Virus record (IMG/VR): IMGVR_UViG_3300019884_000062
Coordinates: 1 to 58,751 of that record
Length of the DNA: 58,751 nucleotides
Source of the DNA: a virus
Reading direction: 5' to 3' (one strand)
Below the pieces are notes generated by a model. It saw only the letters and a program-made list of their open reading frames with translations, had not been told where the DNA came from and did no database searches. Each line of letters starts with the position of its first letter. The stretch's first letter is position 1. This document shows, in pieces, positions 3,316 to 24,568 of this stretch. A program made the position numbers and the translations under genes.

Positions 3316-3512
3316 GGGACCTCCGTTGGAGATAGCGCTCGGCAGATGAGCGTGTCCGGGTTGCCGTCCGTGGGCATAAGCGAGCGCGCCTCCTTCAGTT
3401 CTACTTTAGACGACCCATTGGCCGTAGAGGTCACCTCTACGAGCCAACGAAGATCATCGAGCGTGATCGGTCCCTCCAGTCTGACTTCGTTGGTCGATAT
3501 CCGCTTGGCCAT
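3312..3512 (-). CDS. Hypothetical protein
   Basis: 66 residues from ATG 3512, which overlaps the preceding stop by one base. Starts MAKRISTNEVRLEGP and is mixed charged/hydrophobic with no membrane segment. A perfect 9-bp inverted repeat (3423-3441) sits in the middle of the gene. Function unknown. Confidence 0.65.
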   Translation of the reverse strand: MAKRISTNEVRLEGPITLDDLRWLVEVTSTANGSSKVELKEARSLMPTDGNPDTLICRALSPTEVP

Positions 3513-3745
3513 CAGTTCGTGCCTCGCGCGGTGGCTGGATCGGTGGGCGCGGTCGGCTCCGGCACCGGCCGATACGTCAAGTCCACATCGGCCAAATCCT
3601 TGGTCCCGTCCGCCGGATTCGAATGGTAGATTTCCCACAGCTCCTCCTCCGCCGTGAGTTGGCGATCGGCCCGAGCCACCGGGTCGATCAACCCGTCGCC
3701 TCCACCGAATTCAGTATGTCCCTTTGGAGCCTTCTCATACGGCAT
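3512..3745 (-). CDS. Hypothetical acidic protein, first gene after the iteron region
   Basis: 77 residues. ATG 3745 is preceded by AGGAG at seven bases. Polar and acidic, with a Pro/Thr-rich C-terminus. It is the first gene downstream of the 376-bp noncoding iteron region, so its promoter or leader should lie there. Function unknown. Confidence 0.7.
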   Translation of the reverse strand: MPYEKAPKGHTEFGGGDGLIDPVARADRQLTAEEELWEIYHSNPADGTKDLADVDLTYRPVPEPTAPTDPATARGTN

Positions 3746-4121
3746 ATCGAACTCCTACCTCAATACTAGGAGAAAACCTCAATTCATCCGTTGCAAAGTG
3801 CCTCGGCGAGGCAGACGGGTTAGCGAAAGTTTAGGACCACTCGCGTAGGCGCGCGCGAGGCTCGCTGTAGGCGTACGACGCGCAATCGCGTCTACCAGTA
3901 CAAATACATATTGCAATAAGAAACACACCCTCCTATAGGGTCTAACTCTCTCTCTAACCCGTCTACCCGTCTGCCTCCTCTAGTCTTTATGCATCTTGAC
4001 CAGCAAAAACTCAGGCAGACGGGTTATCATTTTTACCCGGCTGCTACCCGTCTTCTACCCGGCTGCCTCATTTTTCCCCAAGAGGCCGGCAGACGGGTAG
4101 GCGGACGGGTAGGAAGACGGG
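3746..4121. other. Noncoding region with iterons: candidate replication origin
   Basis: No convincing gene in 376 bases. It holds about ten copies of an iteron (see the next entry), an AT-rich stretch at 3897-3933 in an otherwise GC-rich genome, a small hairpin (GACGCG/CGCGTC, 3877-3892), the box GACCAGCAAAAACTC at 3998-4012, and CGAAAGTTTAGG near 3824. It lies between the end of the primase-helicase gene and the next gene. Repeated iterons plus AT-rich DNA beside a replication initiator gene is the classic arrangement of an iteron origin; function here is inferred. Confidence 0.7.
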
Positions 4122-4124
4122 TTA
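3810..4124. repeat. Iteron array, consensus GGCAGACGGGTTA
   Basis: Copies start at 3810 and 4014 (plus), 4088, 4100 and 4112 (plus, head to tail every 12 bp), and in reverse orientation at 3955, 3965, 4034, 4045 and 4056 (the last three every 11 bp). The core is GACGGGT/ACCCGTC; some copies have GCCGGGT. The last copy overlaps the TAA of the primase-helicase gene at 4122. Helical-phase spacing suggests cooperative protein binding. Confidence 0.8.
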
Positions 4125-6593
4125 GAGCGCCCCGAAAAGCCTTGCGAATTCCTCAGAAAGTCGGATACCCGCTCGGACCTTGACCACATGCCTTCCATCA
4201 TCATCAATAACGGTCTTGCTCTTCTTGTCAAAGCCTCGGCCTGACATATAGCTACCAAACTTAGTGTTCGACTCGGGCTTGATCCCGTTCGTCGTACACC
4301 ATTGCTTATAGGCGGTGTAGAGCGCTTCCGGCGCGACCGAGGCACCCGGCTCAGCAATAGCAATCTCGCCTAGCGCTCGGTCGAAGTCGGACAATTCCCC
4401 CAAGAACTTCTCGCGCGCTTCGAGCGCGCCTGCCGGCATATCGAGGTCCCGAGACGCGGCGTACATGGTCCATCCTTCGAGCGCCCACGCGAGCACGGCC
4501 GGTGCGACCTCCGGCGAGGTGAGCCGGTCGAGCATCGTGTCGTCCTCATCAGACTGTAGGATGACTTGGTCCCACGGCACGATCACGAGCCGCCTACGAA
4601 CAGCCTCATCCGCGCCTTCGATCGTGGGAGAGTTGTTACATAGCAACCAAGGCGTGAAGGCCGGGATGACCTCCCAGAAGGTGTCCGATCGCATCCCGCG
4701 CGCGACTACCGGCGCGCCACCTGTGAGCCGCTTGACTTGGTCCGCATGGAGGTGCCAAGCTTGCGAGGTCTCCTCTGCGACTATCATGCGCTTTCTGAGC
4801 GCTCGCACCAGATCCGGGCGCGGGCGGTCATCTTGGTTGTCCCGGAACACGGTCATGGTCACGGCCGCTGCGTAGTCCCCCAGCGCCGAGCGTAGCGCCT
4901 CGGCGAACGTGGTCTTGCCCGTAGATGACGGGCCAAAGCATACAACAAACAGACGACGTGGGTTGGCGCCATACAGCGAGTAACCCACCAGCTTCTGGAG
5001 CCAGGCCCGAATCTCTGGATCCGGTTGGAACCGATCCAGGAATGCGTCCCAGTCCGGATGGGTGGTACCCTCCACCGAGGCGACATCGCGCACTCCTAGC
5101 TTCATGGTCATCTTGTGTTCGGGGAGAGCCGGCGTGATCGTGAAACCCGGGTTTCTAGACAACACAGCCCGGTCTAGCCGCGCTGGGTCCGCGTCGAAAT
5201 CTGAGCCGAGCACAGAGATCCCGCGCAAGCAGGAGGCGACCGAGATCATAGCCTCCAACGAGCCCTTGGATTCCGACTTGCGGGCCCACTTCTTCAACTC
5301 GACCATCTGGGCCGGATCTTCATCGGCCAAGAACTCAGCCTCATCGCCGATTGCCCGCGCCACTTGGATGGCCCGGCGCTTTACCTCGCCGTTCCGGTCG
5401 ATAATCCAACGTCCTTCAGCGTCCGACCAGAAGAGCCAGCCCCAACCTTCGACGTACCGCATATCGTGTCGGTTGGCGATCGCGAGCCGTTCGGCGTTGC
5501 CCGTATCGCTCCGGGCGTAGCTAAGATGTGCACTACCGCCGCTATCTCCGCCCGCCGGCTCATGCTCATCGCCATTCGAAGTGTTGCCGCCGCCCATACC
5601 TCCATCGAGTAGAGCACAGATGTCCCCATCCTCGGCCAAGCCTTCGGCCGCAACCTTTTGTACGCCTCGGATCACGATCCGAGCCCACTCCTCGGCGGCC
5701 TGCCGTTCGTCTGCGCGTCGAGCCGTAGCGGGGATGAACGTCTTTCGTAGTTCGGCAAGCGCCTTCTCCACGCCCGCGTGCCCGGCGTGTGCGTCCCCGA
5801 TGATCGCCCATGCCCCGTCGCGTCCGGCGTCGTGCGTCCCGCCGTCATCCGAGGCTTGCCGCGCCTTACGTTGGTAGGTCGTGAGAGTCCGCCGCATGGT
5901 CGCGCACATCTCCGGCCCGTTCCGGTTGGAGAGCCACATGCGTACATCGGCCTCATCGAGGTCCGCCACCGGCCGATCGGTCCAGCGCTTCCCGGACGTC
6001 AGACCTTCGATCCATAGCGCGGGTAGGTCCGGCACCTCATCCGGTGTTGGAAAGTCGTTACCCGGTCCCTTGATCCCATCGACCCACCAACGGTACCGGG
6101 CACCGTTTGCGTCTGGATTTGTTGAGGGGTCCACCATAGCGTAACGATGGTCCCAACGGACTAGCTCTACACCGCCGCCTTGCGGCAACTTACCGGGCCA
6201 CGCCAACCCTTCTGGAATCCTGAAGAGCCGGATGCCAGAGCCATCCTCCCGCGCGGTTGGGTAGTAGGTCGCAGGTAGCTCGCCCCATGCTTTGATGGCA
6301 GCCGCGAAGGTCTCCCGGCCTTGCTTGCCCTCGTACATATCCACATCGATGCCCAAGACTGTCTTGGGTAGCCGGAGGCCGATGTTTCCGCCCGCCGCGA
6401 GCCACACCATGTTACCGGCTGAGACGCGCGCCTTGGGGCGGAGCCACTTCTTGAGAGTGACTTCGTCAACGTATGCCCCGTGTACGCCAGTGTACCCATC
6501 GACTGGTGGCCACTTACAATTCGCCGGAAACGGGACCGGCGACCAACCTGCGTCGAAGTACGCTTGCGCGGCGAGGCCATATGGCCCAGTCAC
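4122..6593 (-). CDS. Primase-polymerase / SF3 (D5-like) helicase
   Basis: 823 residues. The N-terminal part resembles the bifunctional primase-polymerase domain: PVPFPANCKWPPVDGYTG near residue 20, acidic pair in GIDVDMYEG (D83, D85), and GVELVRWDHRY near 141. An acidic Gly/Ser-rich linker (about 325-360) separates it from a D5_N/SF3 helicase part with Walker A GPSSTGKTT (554-562), KRMIVAEET as likely Walker B, and a C-terminal winged-helix-like segment. It should prime and unwind DNA at the phage origin; the iteron array abuts its stop codon. Start is GTG 6593 in a GTGA overlap with the upstream small gene. Domain calls are from motif recognition; confidence is high for the helicase half. 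Confidence 0.9.
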   Translation of the reverse strand: MTGPYGLAAQAYFDAGWSPVPFPANCKWPPVDGYTGVHGAYVDEVTLKKWLRPKARVSAGNMVWLAAGGNIGLRLPKTVLGIDVDMYEGKQGRETFAAAIKAWGELPATYYPTAREDGSGIRLFRIPEGLAWPGKLPQGGGVELVRWDHRYAMVDPSTNPDANGARYRWWVDGIKGPGNDFPTPDEVPDLPALWIEGLTSGKRWTDRPVADLDEADVRMWLSNRNGPEMCATMRRTLTTYQRKARQASDDGGTHDAGRDGAWAIIGDAHAGHAGVEKALAELRKTFIPATARRADERQAAEEWARIVIRGVQKVAAEGLAEDGDICALLDGGMGGGNTSNGDEHEPAGGDSGGSAHLSYARSDTGNAERLAIANRHDMRYVEGWGWLFWSDAEGRWIIDRNGEVKRRAIQVARAIGDEAEFLADEDPAQMVELKKWARKSESKGSLEAMISVASCLRGISVLGSDFDADPARLDRAVLSRNPGFTITPALPEHKMTMKLGVRDVASVEGTTHPDWDAFLDRFQPDPEIRAWLQKLVGYSLYGANPRRLFVVCFGPSSTGKTTFAEALRSALGDYAAAVTMTVFRDNQDDRPRPDLVRALRKRMIVAEETSQAWHLHADQVKRLTGGAPVVARGMRSDTFWEVIPAFTPWLLCNNSPTIEGADEAVRRRLVIVPWDQVILQSDEDDTMLDRLTSPEVAPAVLAWALEGWTMYAASRDLDMPAGALEAREKFLGELSDFDRALGEIAIAEPGASVAPEALYTAYKQWCTTNGIKPESNTKFGSYMSGRGFDKKSKTVIDDDGRHVVKVRAGIRLSEEFARLFGAL

Positions 6594-6769
6594 GCGACCG
6601 CCGCGTAACCGGCAACCAGCAGCTCGCGGGCAACAACCGATCGACGTACCTTCCGGCGCTTCGCCTCAGCGCGAATGTACGCCGCAATCTCGTCAGGCGC
6701 GTGGGTCTGAACCTTGGGGCCGATGGGAGGCCGCCCAGGGCCGCTGCCTTGCCTCTCAACAACTTCCAC
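6590..6769 (-). CDS. Ribbon-helix-helix-like putative DNA-binding protein
   Basis: 59 residues from GTG 6769, preceded by GGGAG at five bases. After a GRPP segment, a short strand (PKVQTHAP) and two helices (DEIAAYIRAEAKRRK and RRSVVARELLVAGY) match the pattern of CopG/Arc-type regulators. It precedes and overlaps the primase-helicase gene, so it could autoregulate the replication genes or bind the iterons. This is inference from fold pattern and position. Confidence 0.6.
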   Translation of the reverse strand: MEVVERQGSGPGRPPIGPKVQTHAPDEIAAYIRAEAKRRKVRRSVVARELLVAGYAAVA

Positions 6770-6827
6770 ATCGACTCCCAGGTTATTCGATCGTGATTCG
6801 GGGTACCCGAGTCTATACCCGACGGAT

Positions 6828-7091
6828 CTAGAAGTGCCTGGTGTCGTCTGCCCAACCAAAGCAAGCTCGGCACTGCCGCCCATCCGCGCCGGGCAGGTAG
6901 TAGTGCGGGAACCAGTTGAGGAAGAACTCGCGCGAGATCATGCGCATACGTCTGCGATTACGCTGCCGCTCCATCCGGAGCCGGCTCTGCTTCGTGGTCT
7001 GCCGGTGCTTCGCTTGCTGCGCTCGCTTCGCCTCCGTCTGCGCTAGCATCCGCATCCGTGCTCTCAGCTCTGGGAAGTCCGTGGTCAACAT
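6828..7091 (-). CDS. Small basic protein overlapping the resolvase gene
   Basis: 87 residues. ATG 7091 has a strong AAGGAG site. The first 50 residues are an Arg/Lys/Gln-rich helix; the C-terminus (SREFFLNWFPHYY, then CRAC) looks folded and may bind metal. The N-terminal half overlaps the 3' end of the RuvC-like gene by 134 bases in another frame; an internal ATG at 6941 would reduce this but lacks a good site. Function unknown. Confidence 0.55.
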   Translation of the reverse strand: MLTTDFPELRARMRMLAQTEAKRAQQAKHRQTTKQSRLRMERQRNRRRMRMISREFFLNWFPHYYLPGADGRQCRACFGWADDTRHF

Positions 7092-12479: not shown

Positions 12480-12671
12480 CTAGTACTGCCCGATGCGGAA
12501 CAGCATGGTGTCGCTGAGAGTAACCGGCACCTTGTGAATCTCCACAAGCGCGTGCAGAACGAAGTTCATTTGGTCCAAGTTGCTCGCGGTCGCGCAGTGG
12601 GTAACGAGGCCAGCATAGTCCTCGATGAAGATGCTGTTACCTACCACGATGAACTGCTTGATGGGAGTCAT
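12480..12671 (-). CDS. Small hypothetical protein
   Basis: 63 residues from ATG 12671 after GGAGG; the start lies within the last codons of the polymerase gene. Hydrophobic/beta N-terminus (IKQFIVVGNSIFI) then a helical region. Function unknown; coupled expression with the polymerase is likely. Confidence 0.65.
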   Translation of the reverse strand: MTPIKQFIVVGNSIFIEDYAGLVTHCATASNLDQMNFVLHALVEIHKVPVTLSDTMLFRIGQY

Positions 12672-15600
12672 GAGTCAACCTCCGGATCGATGATGTGTAG
12701 TTCTTTGACGTAGAGCGAGGCGCCGAAACTGTTCTGTGACTTCACGGCGCGGACCCAGATCACATCCTGGCCGAGCCGGATGCGTTCCAGGCCTTGCTTG
12801 AACATTGGGTAGTCGTACCGCTTCACGCGCACATAGACGTCCTCATCTCCATCGTCGCCACAGTGGAGTACGCAAGACGTAGGGAGGTCTGGCCTCCACA
12901 TCTCCGCCTTGATCTCCTCCACGTCCTTGCCGCTCCGCGAGCGCTCATCCTCGATGTAGTCCTTGTACTCCTTGACTCGCGGGATGCCGATCCAGATGAT
13001 CTCTACGTCCGGCGGTACGTCTAGGATGTCATCGCTTCGGCACGTCGGACGGCCGAGCGGGAGCGCGCCTGTGCGGATGTCCGCCCGTACCGCGTCTAGC
13101 ATCCGCTCGACTCGCTTGAGGCCGAACGGGTCATCACCGTCCAGCTGGTCCTCGAAGCCCTCAAGTATCTTCGCGCCGATCCCGTTGACCTTCAACAGAT
13201 CCCACGAGCCTGTGTACTCGTGTGTCTCAAGCCAGCGAAGTATCTTCCCGCTCAGGGACGGACCGATGCCCTTTAGCTGCGTCCATCCAGCCGCGACCTC
13301 GTGATCCGAGACCATCGTCCAGTCCTCAGAGGACCTTCCAGGCTTCACGCCATATACGGTGATCCCATGCTGCTCCGCGTCCTTGATGAGACGCGGCCAC
13401 ATAGTCTCCTTGGTACGCCTCAGTTGCGCGGTGTAGAAGGCAGCCGGGTGATGTACCTTGAACCACATCGCCCATACCCCTAGCATGGAGTAGGATATGC
13501 AGTGCGCGACGTTGAACGCGTAGGTAGCCGAGGTCACAAGCCGGCCCCATATGCCCTTAGCCGTCTCCGCGTCGATGCCGTGGAGTCGCTTGGCTCCGGC
13601 CGCGAAGCTCTCCGCACTCTCGTTGAACTTCGCCTCGCCGAGCTTCTTGCTGATGATCTTGCGGATCTCGTGGACCTCCGCGACCGGCAAGCCGCCGACA
13701 AGCTCCAGAATCTTCAGAATCTGCTCCTGGTAGATGATCTGATAGTTGGTGTCCTTCGTGAGGTCATCGATCATAGGGTGCCAGTGCCGCGCCTTCTTGC
13801 GGCCCCATTTCACGTCCACGTAGTCCGCTGTGGTACCGGAGAACAGAGGTCCAGGGCGGCTCAGCGCGTTGATAGCGGCCAGCTCCATAAACGTGTCCGG
13901 CTTGACATCTCGGTTCACGAGCCGGGTAGCTCGACCTTCGAACTGGAAGATGCCCACGACATCATTGCGGCGGAACGCATCCATGACCTCCGGCTCTTCC
14001 ATGGAGATCCGGTACAGGTCTTCAAGCGTGAGGCCGGTCAACGTGAGCGCCTGGTCGATCATCTCCATCGTAGAGAGTCCCAGGAAGTCAACCTTCAACA
14101 GGTTCAGATACTCGGCGTCATACTTGTCCACCGCGACCACACGAACCTCGTGGCCCTTGACCTCTCTGGTATATGCCGCAACAACTTCATCCAGCGCACG
14201 ATCGGTCGTCACCACGAGTCCGGCCGCGTGCACGTTCATCGTCTTGTAATTGCCTTCGAGCCGAGCCGCCTTCCAGAGGTCCGGATGCCGGTCGAACACG
14301 GCTTGTACGGCCGGGAACATACCGACCGTATCGGCAAGCGTGAAGTCGGCGCGCGAGTCTCCGCCGCTCCGCTCGATCAACATACCCTTCACGGTCTCCG
14401 CGTCTACCTTGGGAATCCGGTACACGCGGGCGATATCATCGATGGAGTTACGACCCTTGTAGCCGACATAGTTGGCGAGGTTCCCAACCCGGTCCTCGCC
14501 GTACCGGCGCACTAGGTGTTCGCGGACCTCGTGCCGTCGCGAGCTAGCAAAGTCGAGGTCGATGTCAGGGATGTCAGTCCTAGTAGGATCGATGAAGCGC
14601 TCGAAGTACATGAGCGGGTACTCCATCGGGTCAATCTCGGTGATCCTAAGTAGATAGCAAACCAAGGAAGCCGCAGCAGAGCCACGGGCCGGTCCCACAG
14701 GGATACCCGCATCCTTCGCAAATCTGACCGCATCGGCAGTGATGAGGAAGTAGTCGATGAAGTCCTTCGCTTTGATGTCCCCCATCTCCCGTAGGAGACG
14801 GTTGTGGTAGGCCACTTTCTCCGCAACCATCTTCCGATTGCCTTGCGCGACGCGGTACGCCCACCCCTCCCTCATCCACTTCCATATCAACTCCTCAGAG
14901 GACAGTCCTAACGCGACTTGGTCAACCGGGAACCGGAGATCACCGGCGCGCGGTAGCTCCACCGTGCAGCGCTCGGCTATCTCCATAGTGGAGCGACAAG
15001 CCTCCATGGCTGCCCGTCTACTTAGGCCAGTCCCTAGTAGACGGTCGAACACGAACTGGTCGGTAATCGGGTGCGTCAACCGGATGTCGTACTCCCACGA
15101 CTCAACCTGCTGCTTTACCGAGTTGCTACCGCGCGAGGCGGCGTGGAGAATGACCTGCATCTCGTTATCGTCAGCCTGCGGGTAGTGAACATCCTGAGTA
15201 CCGACCAACGGGATGCCAAGCTCGCCTCCCAGACGTTGGTACGCCTGGTTGATTTGCCCGGAGCGCGGGAGCTCAGGGAAGGCTTGGCACTCAAGGTAGA
15301 AGCGATCACCCAGTAAACCCTTGAACCGCTGGGCAACCGCCTTCGCGCGAGCATAGGACGCGTCAGCCGCGTCGATGGTCTTTCCACCCAGGAGACTAGA
15401 GGCCAGCAAGGAGTCTGAGCATCCTGATAGGATGATGAGACCCTCATGGTGATCCGCGAGCATGGACCCGTTGACCGTAGGCCAGTAATAGAAATTCTCA
15501 GCATATGAGCGCGTCACAATCCGGTTGAGGTTCGCGTACCCGGTCTGGTTCATGGCCAAGAGCGTGAGGTGGAACTTGCGTTGCGAGCCCGGCTCCGGAT

Positions 15601-15808
15601 GCGTGTACGCCTCCATGCCGAATATGGGCTTAATGCCGGCCTTCTTGGCAGCCTTCTCAAGCTGTACGTGTGACGAGACGTTGCCGTGCTCGGTCAGCGC
15701 TCCCGCGCTCATCCCTAGCTCGGCAGTGCGTAGCACGTGTGCCTCCGGCGTACCGAACCCATCGCCATAGCTGAAGGTCGAGTGGTGGTGCAGGCTAACG
15801 AACTTCAC
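12668..15808 (-). CDS. dnaE-like: DNA polymerase III alpha subunit-like (family C) replicative polymerase
   Basis: 1046 residues from GTG 15808. The N-terminus carries a PHP domain (SLHHHSTFSYGDG, then ALTEHGN near residue 40), with His and Asp residues typical of the active metal-binding form, so it may proofread or hydrolyse pyrophosphate. The polymerase core shows GPARGSAAASL near 373 and the catalytic PDIDLDF at 414-420, later KVDFLGLS; helix-hairpin-helix segments follow (LKGIGPSLSG, VNGIGAKILEGF). Shorter than most bacterial DnaE (about 1150-1200), probably reduced at the C-terminus. It should be the phage's replicative polymerase. Nine or more palindrome copies lie inside, encoding unusual codons. 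Confidence 0.92.
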   Translation of the reverse strand: MKFVSLHHHSTFSYGDGFGTPEAHVLRTAELGMSAGALTEHGNVSSHVQLEKAAKKAGIKPIFGMEAYTHPEPGSQRKFHLTLLAMNQTGYANLNRIVTRSYAENFYYWPTVNGSMLADHHEGLIILSGCSDSLLASSLLGGKTIDAADASYARAKAVAQRFKGLLGDRFYLECQAFPELPRSGQINQAYQRLGGELGIPLVGTQDVHYPQADDNEMQVILHAASRGSNSVKQQVESWEYDIRLTHPITDQFVFDRLLGTGLSRRAAMEACRSTMEIAERCTVELPRAGDLRFPVDQVALGLSSEELIWKWMREGWAYRVAQGNRKMVAEKVAYHNRLLREMGDIKAKDFIDYFLITADAVRFAKDAGIPVGPARGSAAASLVCYLLRITEIDPMEYPLMYFERFIDPTRTDIPDIDLDFASSRRHEVREHLVRRYGEDRVGNLANYVGYKGRNSIDDIARVYRIPKVDAETVKGMLIERSGGDSRADFTLADTVGMFPAVQAVFDRHPDLWKAARLEGNYKTMNVHAAGLVVTTDRALDEVVAAYTREVKGHEVRVVAVDKYDAEYLNLLKVDFLGLSTMEMIDQALTLTGLTLEDLYRISMEEPEVMDAFRRNDVVGIFQFEGRATRLVNRDVKPDTFMELAAINALSRPGPLFSGTTADYVDVKWGRKKARHWHPMIDDLTKDTNYQIIYQEQILKILELVGGLPVAEVHEIRKIISKKLGEAKFNESAESFAAGAKRLHGIDAETAKGIWGRLVTSATYAFNVAHCISYSMLGVWAMWFKVHHPAAFYTAQLRRTKETMWPRLIKDAEQHGITVYGVKPGRSSEDWTMVSDHEVAAGWTQLKGIGPSLSGKILRWLETHEYTGSWDLLKVNGIGAKILEGFEDQLDGDDPFGLKRVERMLDAVRADIRTGALPLGRPTCRSDDILDVPPDVEIIWIGIPRVKEYKDYIEDERSRSGKDVEEIKAEMWRPDLPTSCVLHCGDDGDEDVYVRVKRYDYPMFKQGLERIRLGQDVIWVRAVKSQNSFGASLYVKELHIIDPEVDS
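13322..13334. repeat. Perfect palindrome copy
   Basis: GTCCTCAGAGGAC inside the polymerase gene, encoding S-S-E-D-W context. Confidence 0.6.
14891..14917. repeat. Tandem palindrome pair in the polymerase gene
   Basis: CTCCTCAGAGGAC at 14891 and GTCCTAACGCGAC at 14905, 14 bp between starts, sharing the junction GGACAGTCCT. Confidence 0.6.
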
Positions 15809-15902
15809 GACGTAACCACCACCTACCGCACACGACGCAAAGCCAAGCCGGAATGTACGCAACGGTCGGACGTGGCGCCTCGGACACGTCCGTTACGACC
15901 AT
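15795..15902 (-). CDS. Possible very small Cys-containing protein
   Basis: A 35-codon frame (ATG 15902 to TAG 15795) in the gap before the polymerase, containing CVVC. It overlaps the polymerase start by 14 bases and has no clear ribosome-binding site. It may be only a leader or chance frame. Confidence 0.25.
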   Translation of the reverse strand: MVVTDVSEAPRPTVAYIPAWLCVVCGRWWLRREVR

Positions 15903-24118: not shown

Positions 24119-24568
24119 TCAGAAAGGCGCCTCATCCGCAGCCGGAGCGGCGGCAGCGGCAGCCCGGCGCCGGGTGGTCGTGGCCTTCGCGGCCTTCGTC
24201 GCCTTGGCGGCCTTCGCGGGCGGAGCCGCCGCCGGAGCCGCATCCGCAGCCGGAGCCGCCGCCTTGGCCGCCTTCTTGGCGGGCTTGGGTGCCGCCGCCG
24301 CCTCTGCGTCCGCCGCCTCCTTCGCGGCCGCACGCTCCTGCGCGATGACCTCGCGCGCCTCGCGCCACTCGTCCGAGGACTGGTGGACCATCACGAGCGC
24401 CTTCGCGAGCCGGACGCCTTCGTTGAACGCCTCCTGCTTGGACTTCGCGAGGTTCGGGTTGTAGCCGGTCTGCTCCACGATCCACTCGGCGAAGTGGGTC
24501 TGCTGCTCGGTCGGCGCCTTCGTCGCGTAGCCGGTGAGGTCGCGCTCGGCGGTCTCTGCCTCGGGCAT
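24119..24568 (-). CDS. Lys/Ala-rich histone-like protein with SSB-like C-tip
   Basis: 149 residues; ATG 24568 after AAGGAG. Residues 20-75 form a helical domain (HFAEWIVEQTGYNPNLAKSK begins it). The C-terminal 70 residues are Ala/Lys/Pro-rich repeats (PAKKAAKAAAP, AKATKAAKATTTRRR) like histone H1 tails, ending ADEAPF, similar to the acidic SSB tip. It probably binds DNA and may contact host repair or replication proteins through the tip. Located beside the SNF2-type helicase. Confidence 0.7.
   Translation of the reverse strand: MPEAETAERDLTGYATKAPTEQQTHFAEWIVEQTGYNPNLAKSKQEAFNEGVRLAKALVMVHQSSDEWREAREVIAQERAAAKEAADAEAAAAPKPAKKAAKAAAPAADAAPAAAPPAKAAKATKAAKATTTRRRAAAAAAPAADEAPF

What the first reader, a model, noticed from the sequence alone, without database searches (positions are those of the whole stretch)
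3746..4124. Iteron-type replication origin beside the primase-helicase gene
About ten copies of GGCAGACGGGTTA or its complement are packed into 315 bp, some in exact 11- or 12-bp series, next to an AT-rich tract and immediately after the primase-helicase stop. No tailed-phage gene occupies this space. Iteron origins are classic in plasmids and some phages; for this phage type it seems undescribed to me.
Basis: partly seen in the sequence, partly recalled or inferred. Interest (0 to 1): 0.72.

Follow-up and report, generated by a model that had tools for sequence, protein, structure and literature searches.

The report
Phage replication origin behind its primase
A virus of bacteria carries, right behind the gene for its DNA-copying starter enzyme, a set of ten short repeated DNA words that most likely marks where copying begins; related viruses keep the same layout but each spells the word differently, which suggests that enzyme and start site change together.

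Summary
Ten copies of a 12-bp unit (AACCCGTCTGCC or complement) lie at 3810-4123, in both orientations, starting on the stop codon of the PrimPol-D5 primase-helicase gene (4122-6593, minus strand). The core 8-mer occurs 7 times there (0 of 300 shuffles reach this) and nowhere else in 58.7 kb.

Comparison supports the origin reading. Most relatives with this kind of primase (about 25 virus contigs and 10 named actinophages) have a noncoding stretch in the same place with their own, different iteron. In eleven close relatives the arrangement is conserved while the iteron is replaced in all copies together. The primase ends in a winged helix that resembles the phage P4 origin-binding domain. P4, run as a positive control, shows its two known iteron loci, one just behind its alpha gene.

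Best explanation: a P4/SaPI-type origin, recognised by the phage's own primase-helicase; a new variant of a known kind. No replication experiment exists; protein-iteron co-variation could not be shown; the role of the invariant box is a guess.

The parts
4122..6593 (-). PrimPol - helical domain - D5/SF3 helicase - C-terminal winged helix; proposed initiator, helicase and primase
   Evidence: Pfam Prim-Pol E 6.7e-16, D5_N E 4.7e-10; AF2 and Foldseek: ASFV PrimPol, MPXV E5, SaPI5 primase-helicase 7ola
4125..4403 (-). C-terminal winged-helix domain (residues 731-823), proposed iteron reader
   Evidence: AF2 pLDDT 90; VIA-align: RFX-DBD Z 9.4, P4 origin-binding domain 1ka8 Z 7.4 over 78 residues; Pox_D5 E 4.5e-4, just under Pfam's cut-off
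4112..4123 (-). iteron A1 (AACCCGTCTTCC), overlaps the primase stop codon
4100..4111 (-). iteron A2 (TACCCGTCCGCC)
4088..4099 (-). iteron A3 (TACCCGTCTGCC)
4056..4067 (+). iteron B1, opposite orientation
4045..4056 (+). iteron B2, opposite orientation, 11-bp spacing
4034..4045 (+). iteron B3, opposite orientation
4014..4025 (-). single iteron s (perfect copy)
   Evidence: in relatives 19-20 bp from B3 and 21-23 bp from the box
3997..4003 (-). invariant box 1 (CTGGTCA in TTTTTGCTGGTCAAGATG)
3964..3975 (+). iteron C1 of the tight doublet
3956..3967 (+). iteron C2, 8 bp from C1 (spacing conserved in relatives)
3899..3928 (.). AT-rich tract (8 of 30 G/C), candidate unwinding element
3892..3898 (-). 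invariant box 2 (CTGGTAG in TTTGTACTGGTAGACG)
3810..3821 (-). iteron D (perfect copy), distal to the AT-rich tract
6590..6883 (-). RHH-like small protein overlapping the primase start; conserved upstream in most relatives; probably an operon regulator, not part of the origin
   Evidence: conserved IGPKxQ motif; no Pfam hit, weak PHROG hit only

Best explanation
The stretch 3810-4123 is the phage's origin of lytic DNA replication, of the P4/SaPI type. The primase-helicase made from the neighbouring gene binds the AACCCGTCTGCC iterons with its C-terminal winged helix, assembles as SF3 hexamers on the opposed arrays, opens the AT-rich tract at 3899-3928, and its PrimPol domain lays the first primers; the phage's own DNA polymerase (12668-15862) then takes over. 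Shown here: the iterons, their layout, the conservation of layout in relatives with different iterons, the invariant box, the domain make-up and predicted folds. Inferred: binding, hexamer loading, melting, priming, and a priming role for the invariant box.
For: (1) Clustering far beyond chance. (2) Same place, directly after the primase stop: 14 of 18 loci including the window have 0 of 300 shuffles reaching their count; of later-fetched loci 9 of 11 virus contigs and 6 of 11 named actinophages have 0 of 200; six controls lacking the gap or the D5 part show nothing. (3) Layout in 11 genomes: opposed blocks A and B, single s, box, doublet C with 8-bp spacing, AT-rich part, block D; s to box 21-23 bp where the box has the same orientation. 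(4) Concerted change: window copies are 87% identical to each other but 60% to same-position copies of relatives. (5) Initiator fold: SaPI5 primase-helicase TM 0.63, P4 origin-binding domain Z 7.4. (6) Positive control: the same blind scan on P4 ranks its annotated ori (6 copies) and crr (5 copies, 46 bp behind the alpha gene) first. (7) SaPI Rep and SCCmec Cch2 bind iterons downstream of their own gene through the C-terminal domain (PMC7581432); PICI rep-ori segments replicate plasmids (PMC6092414). (8) Terminase, portal and polymerase are present: a full tailed phage, not a satellite.
Against: No replication or binding data. Four Zierdtviridae with a similar primase lack any such region behind it, and Thoth, L003 and L091 show no significant iterons. 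GC skew shows no turn. P4 has two iteron loci; only one is found here.
Confidence: 0.8

Rival explanations
1. The origin is recognised as a stem-loop (pRN1 type): what matters is that opposed arrays can fold into hairpins, not the iteron sequence.
For: The strand folds much better than shuffles (z -5.9; -4.5 to -11 in seven relatives). For pRN1, whose protein has PrimPol, SF3 helicase and winged helix, the origin is a stem-loop downstream of the gene (PMC4234260).
Against: With the iterons removed the remaining sequence has no excess structure (z -1.4 to 1.3), so folding follows from having opposed iterons. Tandem same-direction series with 8-, 11- and 12-bp spacing are not needed for a hairpin.
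Confidence: 0.08
2. A regulator array: the iterons are operators of the RHH-like protein (6590-6883) or another repressor that controls downstream genes or copy number.
For: An RHH-like gene lies directly before the primase in most relatives; pRN1 also has a repressor gene there (PMC4234260).
Against: Four relatives with iterons (L022, L026, L057, L058) lack the RHH gene; its presumed contact strand (KVQT) is the same in window and L001 although their iterons differ. No promoter-like site in the stretch.
Confidence: 0.07
3. A partition, packaging or recombination site rather than an origin.
For: Iteron arrays also serve as centromeres and packaging sites in other elements (own knowledge).
Against: The large terminase gene lies about 50 kb away; in the relatives read the array follows the D5 primase gene.
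Confidence: 0.05

Closest known systems
Phage P4 alpha protein with ori and crr
   Same: SF3 helicase-primase initiator with a C-terminal winged-helix origin-binding domain; iterons in both orientations; crr lies 46 bp behind the alpha gene
   Different: P4 alpha has a Toprim primase, not PrimPol (PMC4234260); P4 has two separate iteron loci; P4 is a satellite; the helicase parts are only 26% identical
SaPI / PICI pri-rep-ori replicons
   Same: [quoted passage not shown] helicase fold of SaPI5 7ola
   Different: Here a full-size phage with its own polymerase and a PrimPol fused to the helicase; extra invariant box; the PICI authors stated that no other known bacterial replicon has this organisation
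Archaeal plasmid pRN1 (orf56-orf904-origin)
   Same: Same protein make-up (PrimPol, SF3 helicase, winged helix) and origin directly downstream of the gene; small regulator gene upstream (PMC4234260)
   Different: pRN1 origin is a stem-loop without iterons; its authors suggested that proteins of this make-up recognise stem-loops
Plasmid RSF1010 oriV
   Same: Iterons plus separate primase sites (ssiA, ssiB), a possible parallel to the invariant box (PMC4234260)
   Different: Three separate proteins; the box here is not shown to be a priming site

Membership tests
P4/PICI-type origin (iterons read by a D5/SF3 initiator) | Initiator with SF3/D5 helicase | tested here: met
   Pfam D5_N; profile match to SaPI5 Rep, vaccinia D5, ASFV C962R; Foldseek 7ola
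P4/PICI-type origin (iterons read by a D5/SF3 initiator) | C-terminal winged-helix origin-binding domain | tested here: met
   AF2 pLDDT 90, winged helix; 1ka8 Z 7.4, rmsd 3.3 over 78 residues. Fold only; many winged helices score Z 5-7
P4/PICI-type origin (iterons read by a D5/SF3 initiator) | Multiple iterons immediately 3' of the initiator gene | tested here: met
P4/PICI-type origin (iterons read by a D5/SF3 initiator) | Two iteron sets flanking an AT-rich tract | tested here: met
   A, B, s, C on one side, D on the other side of 3899-3928; the far side holds one copy in the window, two in most relatives
P4/PICI-type origin (iterons read by a D5/SF3 initiator) | Initiator binds the iterons | not testable with these tools
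   needs a shift assay
P4/PICI-type origin (iterons read by a D5/SF3 initiator) | Segment drives autonomous replication with its initiator | not testable with these tools
   needs a plasmid test
Phage P4 replicon proper | Toprim primase domain and a second iteron locus (ori plus crr) | tested here: not met
   PrimPol instead; only one cluster in 58.7 kb
pRN1-type stem-loop origin | Conserved structure that does not rest on iterons | tested here: not met
   no excess folding after iterons are removed

The most novel reading that the evidence does not exclude
A two-part origin code in a broad group of actinobacterial phages: a private iteron word that is replaced in all copies together as phages diverge, keeping each initiator on its own genome, plus an invariant CWGGTMR box at a fixed distance that serves as the start site for the PrimPol primase or the loading site of the helicase.
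Probability: 0.35. Interest if true: 0.7.

Novelty: new variant of a known kind. Interest (0 to 1): 0.52.

Why it matters
Where PrimPol-D5 phages start replication is not annotated in any of the actinophage records read here, although hundreds of phages with related primases are sequenced. The comparison predicts an origin for many of them and gives natural series of initiator-iteron pairs (for example L012, L014 and L023: primases 82-84% identical to L012, iterons with AGAGACG, AGTTACC, AGATACC) with which initiator specificity could be dissected. It also bears on two published statements: that proteins of this make-up recognise stem-loops (PMC4234260) and that two iteron sets flanking an AT-rich region behind rep are found in no replicon other than PICIs (PMC6092414).

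Tried and rejected
Domain-specific co-variation of iterons with the winged helix: not found; the C-terminal domain is the most divergent part (34% versus 53-56% mean identity) but this proves nothing. The shared KVRAGI strand of window and L076, both with CCCGTCT iterons, is one pair and anecdotal. GC-skew turn: none. RNA families: none. Promoters and terminators: nothing above chance. Near DNA relatives among phage records: none. RHH as iteron reader: argued against. DNA structure independent of iterons: none. Invariant box tied to the PrimPol domain only: not upheld, since the JAWS primase matches only from residue 362 on, without the PrimPol part, and still has box-like sites behind it. Literature search for a described origin in such phages: nothing found in the open-access library; subscription papers were not searched. 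Cluster O mycobacteriophages have a suggested origin of a different kind (PMC4351075).

Full report
What is there. The array lies at 3810-4123. In the sense of the primase gene (minus strand) the order is: three units A at 4123-4088 (12-bp spacing, same direction as the gene, the first on the stop codon), three units B at 4067-4034 (11-bp spacing, opposite direction), one unit s at 4025-4014, then CTGGTCA at 4003-3997, a tight doublet C at 3975-3956 (8-bp spacing, opposite direction), an AT-rich tract 3928-3899, CTGGTAG at 3898-3892, and one unit D at 3821-3810. The core 8-mer is present 7 times and nowhere else in the window; no shuffle and no other stretch comes near.

The neighbour. The gene 4122-6593 encodes PrimPol, a helical part, a D5/SF3 helicase and a C-terminal winged helix. 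The whole model resembles ASFV PrimPol, MPXV E5 and the SaPI5 primase-helicase. The C-terminal domain alone (pLDDT 90) is closest to the RFX DNA-binding domain (Z 9.4) and then to ASFV PrimPol and the P4 origin-binding domain 1ka8 (both Z 7.4); ORC winged helices follow. Middling Z values are common for winged helices, so this shows a suitable fold, not function. The genome is that of a tailed phage with terminase, portal, tape measure, endolysin, a DNA polymerase, a helicase and an exonuclease, and ThyX; it has no near DNA relative among phage records for its first 12 kb.

Relatives. IMG/VR contigs with primases about 35-61% identical carry a noncoding stretch directly after the primase stop. 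Each has its own repeated word: AACCCAGTTACG (L001), AACCCAGCTACG (L004), AACCCAGATACC (L011, L024), AACCCAGAGACG (L012), AACCCGTCTACG (L076), and unrelated words such as ATACGTCT (L026), GGTAATT (L117) or GTGAACAG (L115, which shares the core of the P4 type 1 repeat GGTGAACA). Named actinophages do the same: Fowlmouth GTAACCGA, DumpTruck ACGGTACG, Nocardia P3.1 CGGTAACC, Onyinye GTAACCAG, LittleFella GGTTACGC, Hawkeye AATGCGGA. None of these records annotates an origin.

Conserved layout, changing word. In 11 genomes of the AACCC family the units sit in the same order and direction; s to box is 21-23 bp in nine (the box is inverted in L012 and L023), box to C1 is 27-28 bp in seven, C1 to C2 is 8 bp (9 in L001), B3 to s is mostly 19-20 bp. 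Within a genome copies at different places are 85% identical; between genomes copies at the same place are 74% (window: 87% versus 60%). Copies in a genome thus change together, as expected for sites of one sequence-specific protein.

The invariant box. Reading the stretches side by side showed CWGGTMR, often in the form TGTTTNCCCTGGTAGAAGTATATA, next to the AT-rich part in genomes with quite different iterons. It occurs 64 times in 35 regions against 12.7 expected from the same loci, in 32 of 35 regions. Because the pattern was taken from part of these data, the nine regions fetched or inspected afterwards (L040, L043, L044, L046, L050, L057, L058, L068, L076) are the fairer test: 17 against 3.8. 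It is found in either direction and one to five times. Its function is unknown; a primer start site, a helicase loading site or a host-factor site are possible. PMC7581432 reports priming start sites inside the SCCmec origin, and RSF1010 has separate primase sites beside its iterons (PMC4234260), which makes a priming site reasonable but unproven.

Controls. The blind 8-mer scan on phage P4 gives its annotated ori (6 copies) and crr (5) as top peaks, with crr 46 bp behind the alpha gene. Four Zierdtviridae, whose primase gene meets convergent genes, and two phages (Ashwin, REQ1) matched only in the PrimPol part show nothing behind the primase. In NovumRegina the only denser 8-mer cluster is elsewhere (57.7-58.2 kb) and was not followed.

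Rivals. Folding potential is high (z about -6) but vanishes when the iterons are removed, so a pRN1-like structure-read origin is not needed, though not excluded. The RHH-like gene upstream is conserved in most relatives but not found in four that have iterons, and its IGPKxQ strand does not follow the iterons.

What could not be shown. Iteron differences do not correlate with the C-terminal domain more than with other domains. No binding, melting, priming or replication has been measured. GC skew has no turn.

Verdict. A real, conserved, P4/SaPI-type origin candidate in a PrimPol-D5 phage, one of a large set in actinophages for which I found no description; new variant of a known kind.

Noticed in passing
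window 3892-3898, 3997-4003; 32 of 35 regions compared: Invariant CWGGTMR box beside the AT-rich tract, unchanged when the iterons change; function unknown.
   Followed up: partly
window 3840-3895; L011, L015, L016 between doublet C and block D: A GC-rich or CGTACGTACG-like palindromic stretch sits between doublet C and block D in several relatives (window ACGCGATTGCGCGTCGTACGC).
   Followed up: no
window 3512-3745; also L001, L004 and others: Small ORF right after the origin with a conserved start (KAPKGHTEFGGG...LIDP), no family match.
   Followed up: partly
window 6590-6883: RHH-like protein overlapping the primase start; conserved IGPKxQ motif in relatives; operon order resembles pRN1 orf56-orf904.
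   Followed up: partly
L115 3864-4240: A virus contig whose iteron GTGAACAG (9 copies) shares the core of the P4 type 1 repeat GGTGAACA, behind a relative of this PrimPol-type primase.
   Followed up: partly
NovumRegina record MT889393 57700-58250 (L124): Dense 8-mer repeat GCCGCCCA (7 copies in 350 bp) away from the primase in a phage that lacks the region behind it; inside an annotated gene.
   Followed up: no
window 24178-24371: Overlapping 9-, 18- and 30-bp tandem repeats, probably a repetitive coding stretch.
   Followed up: no
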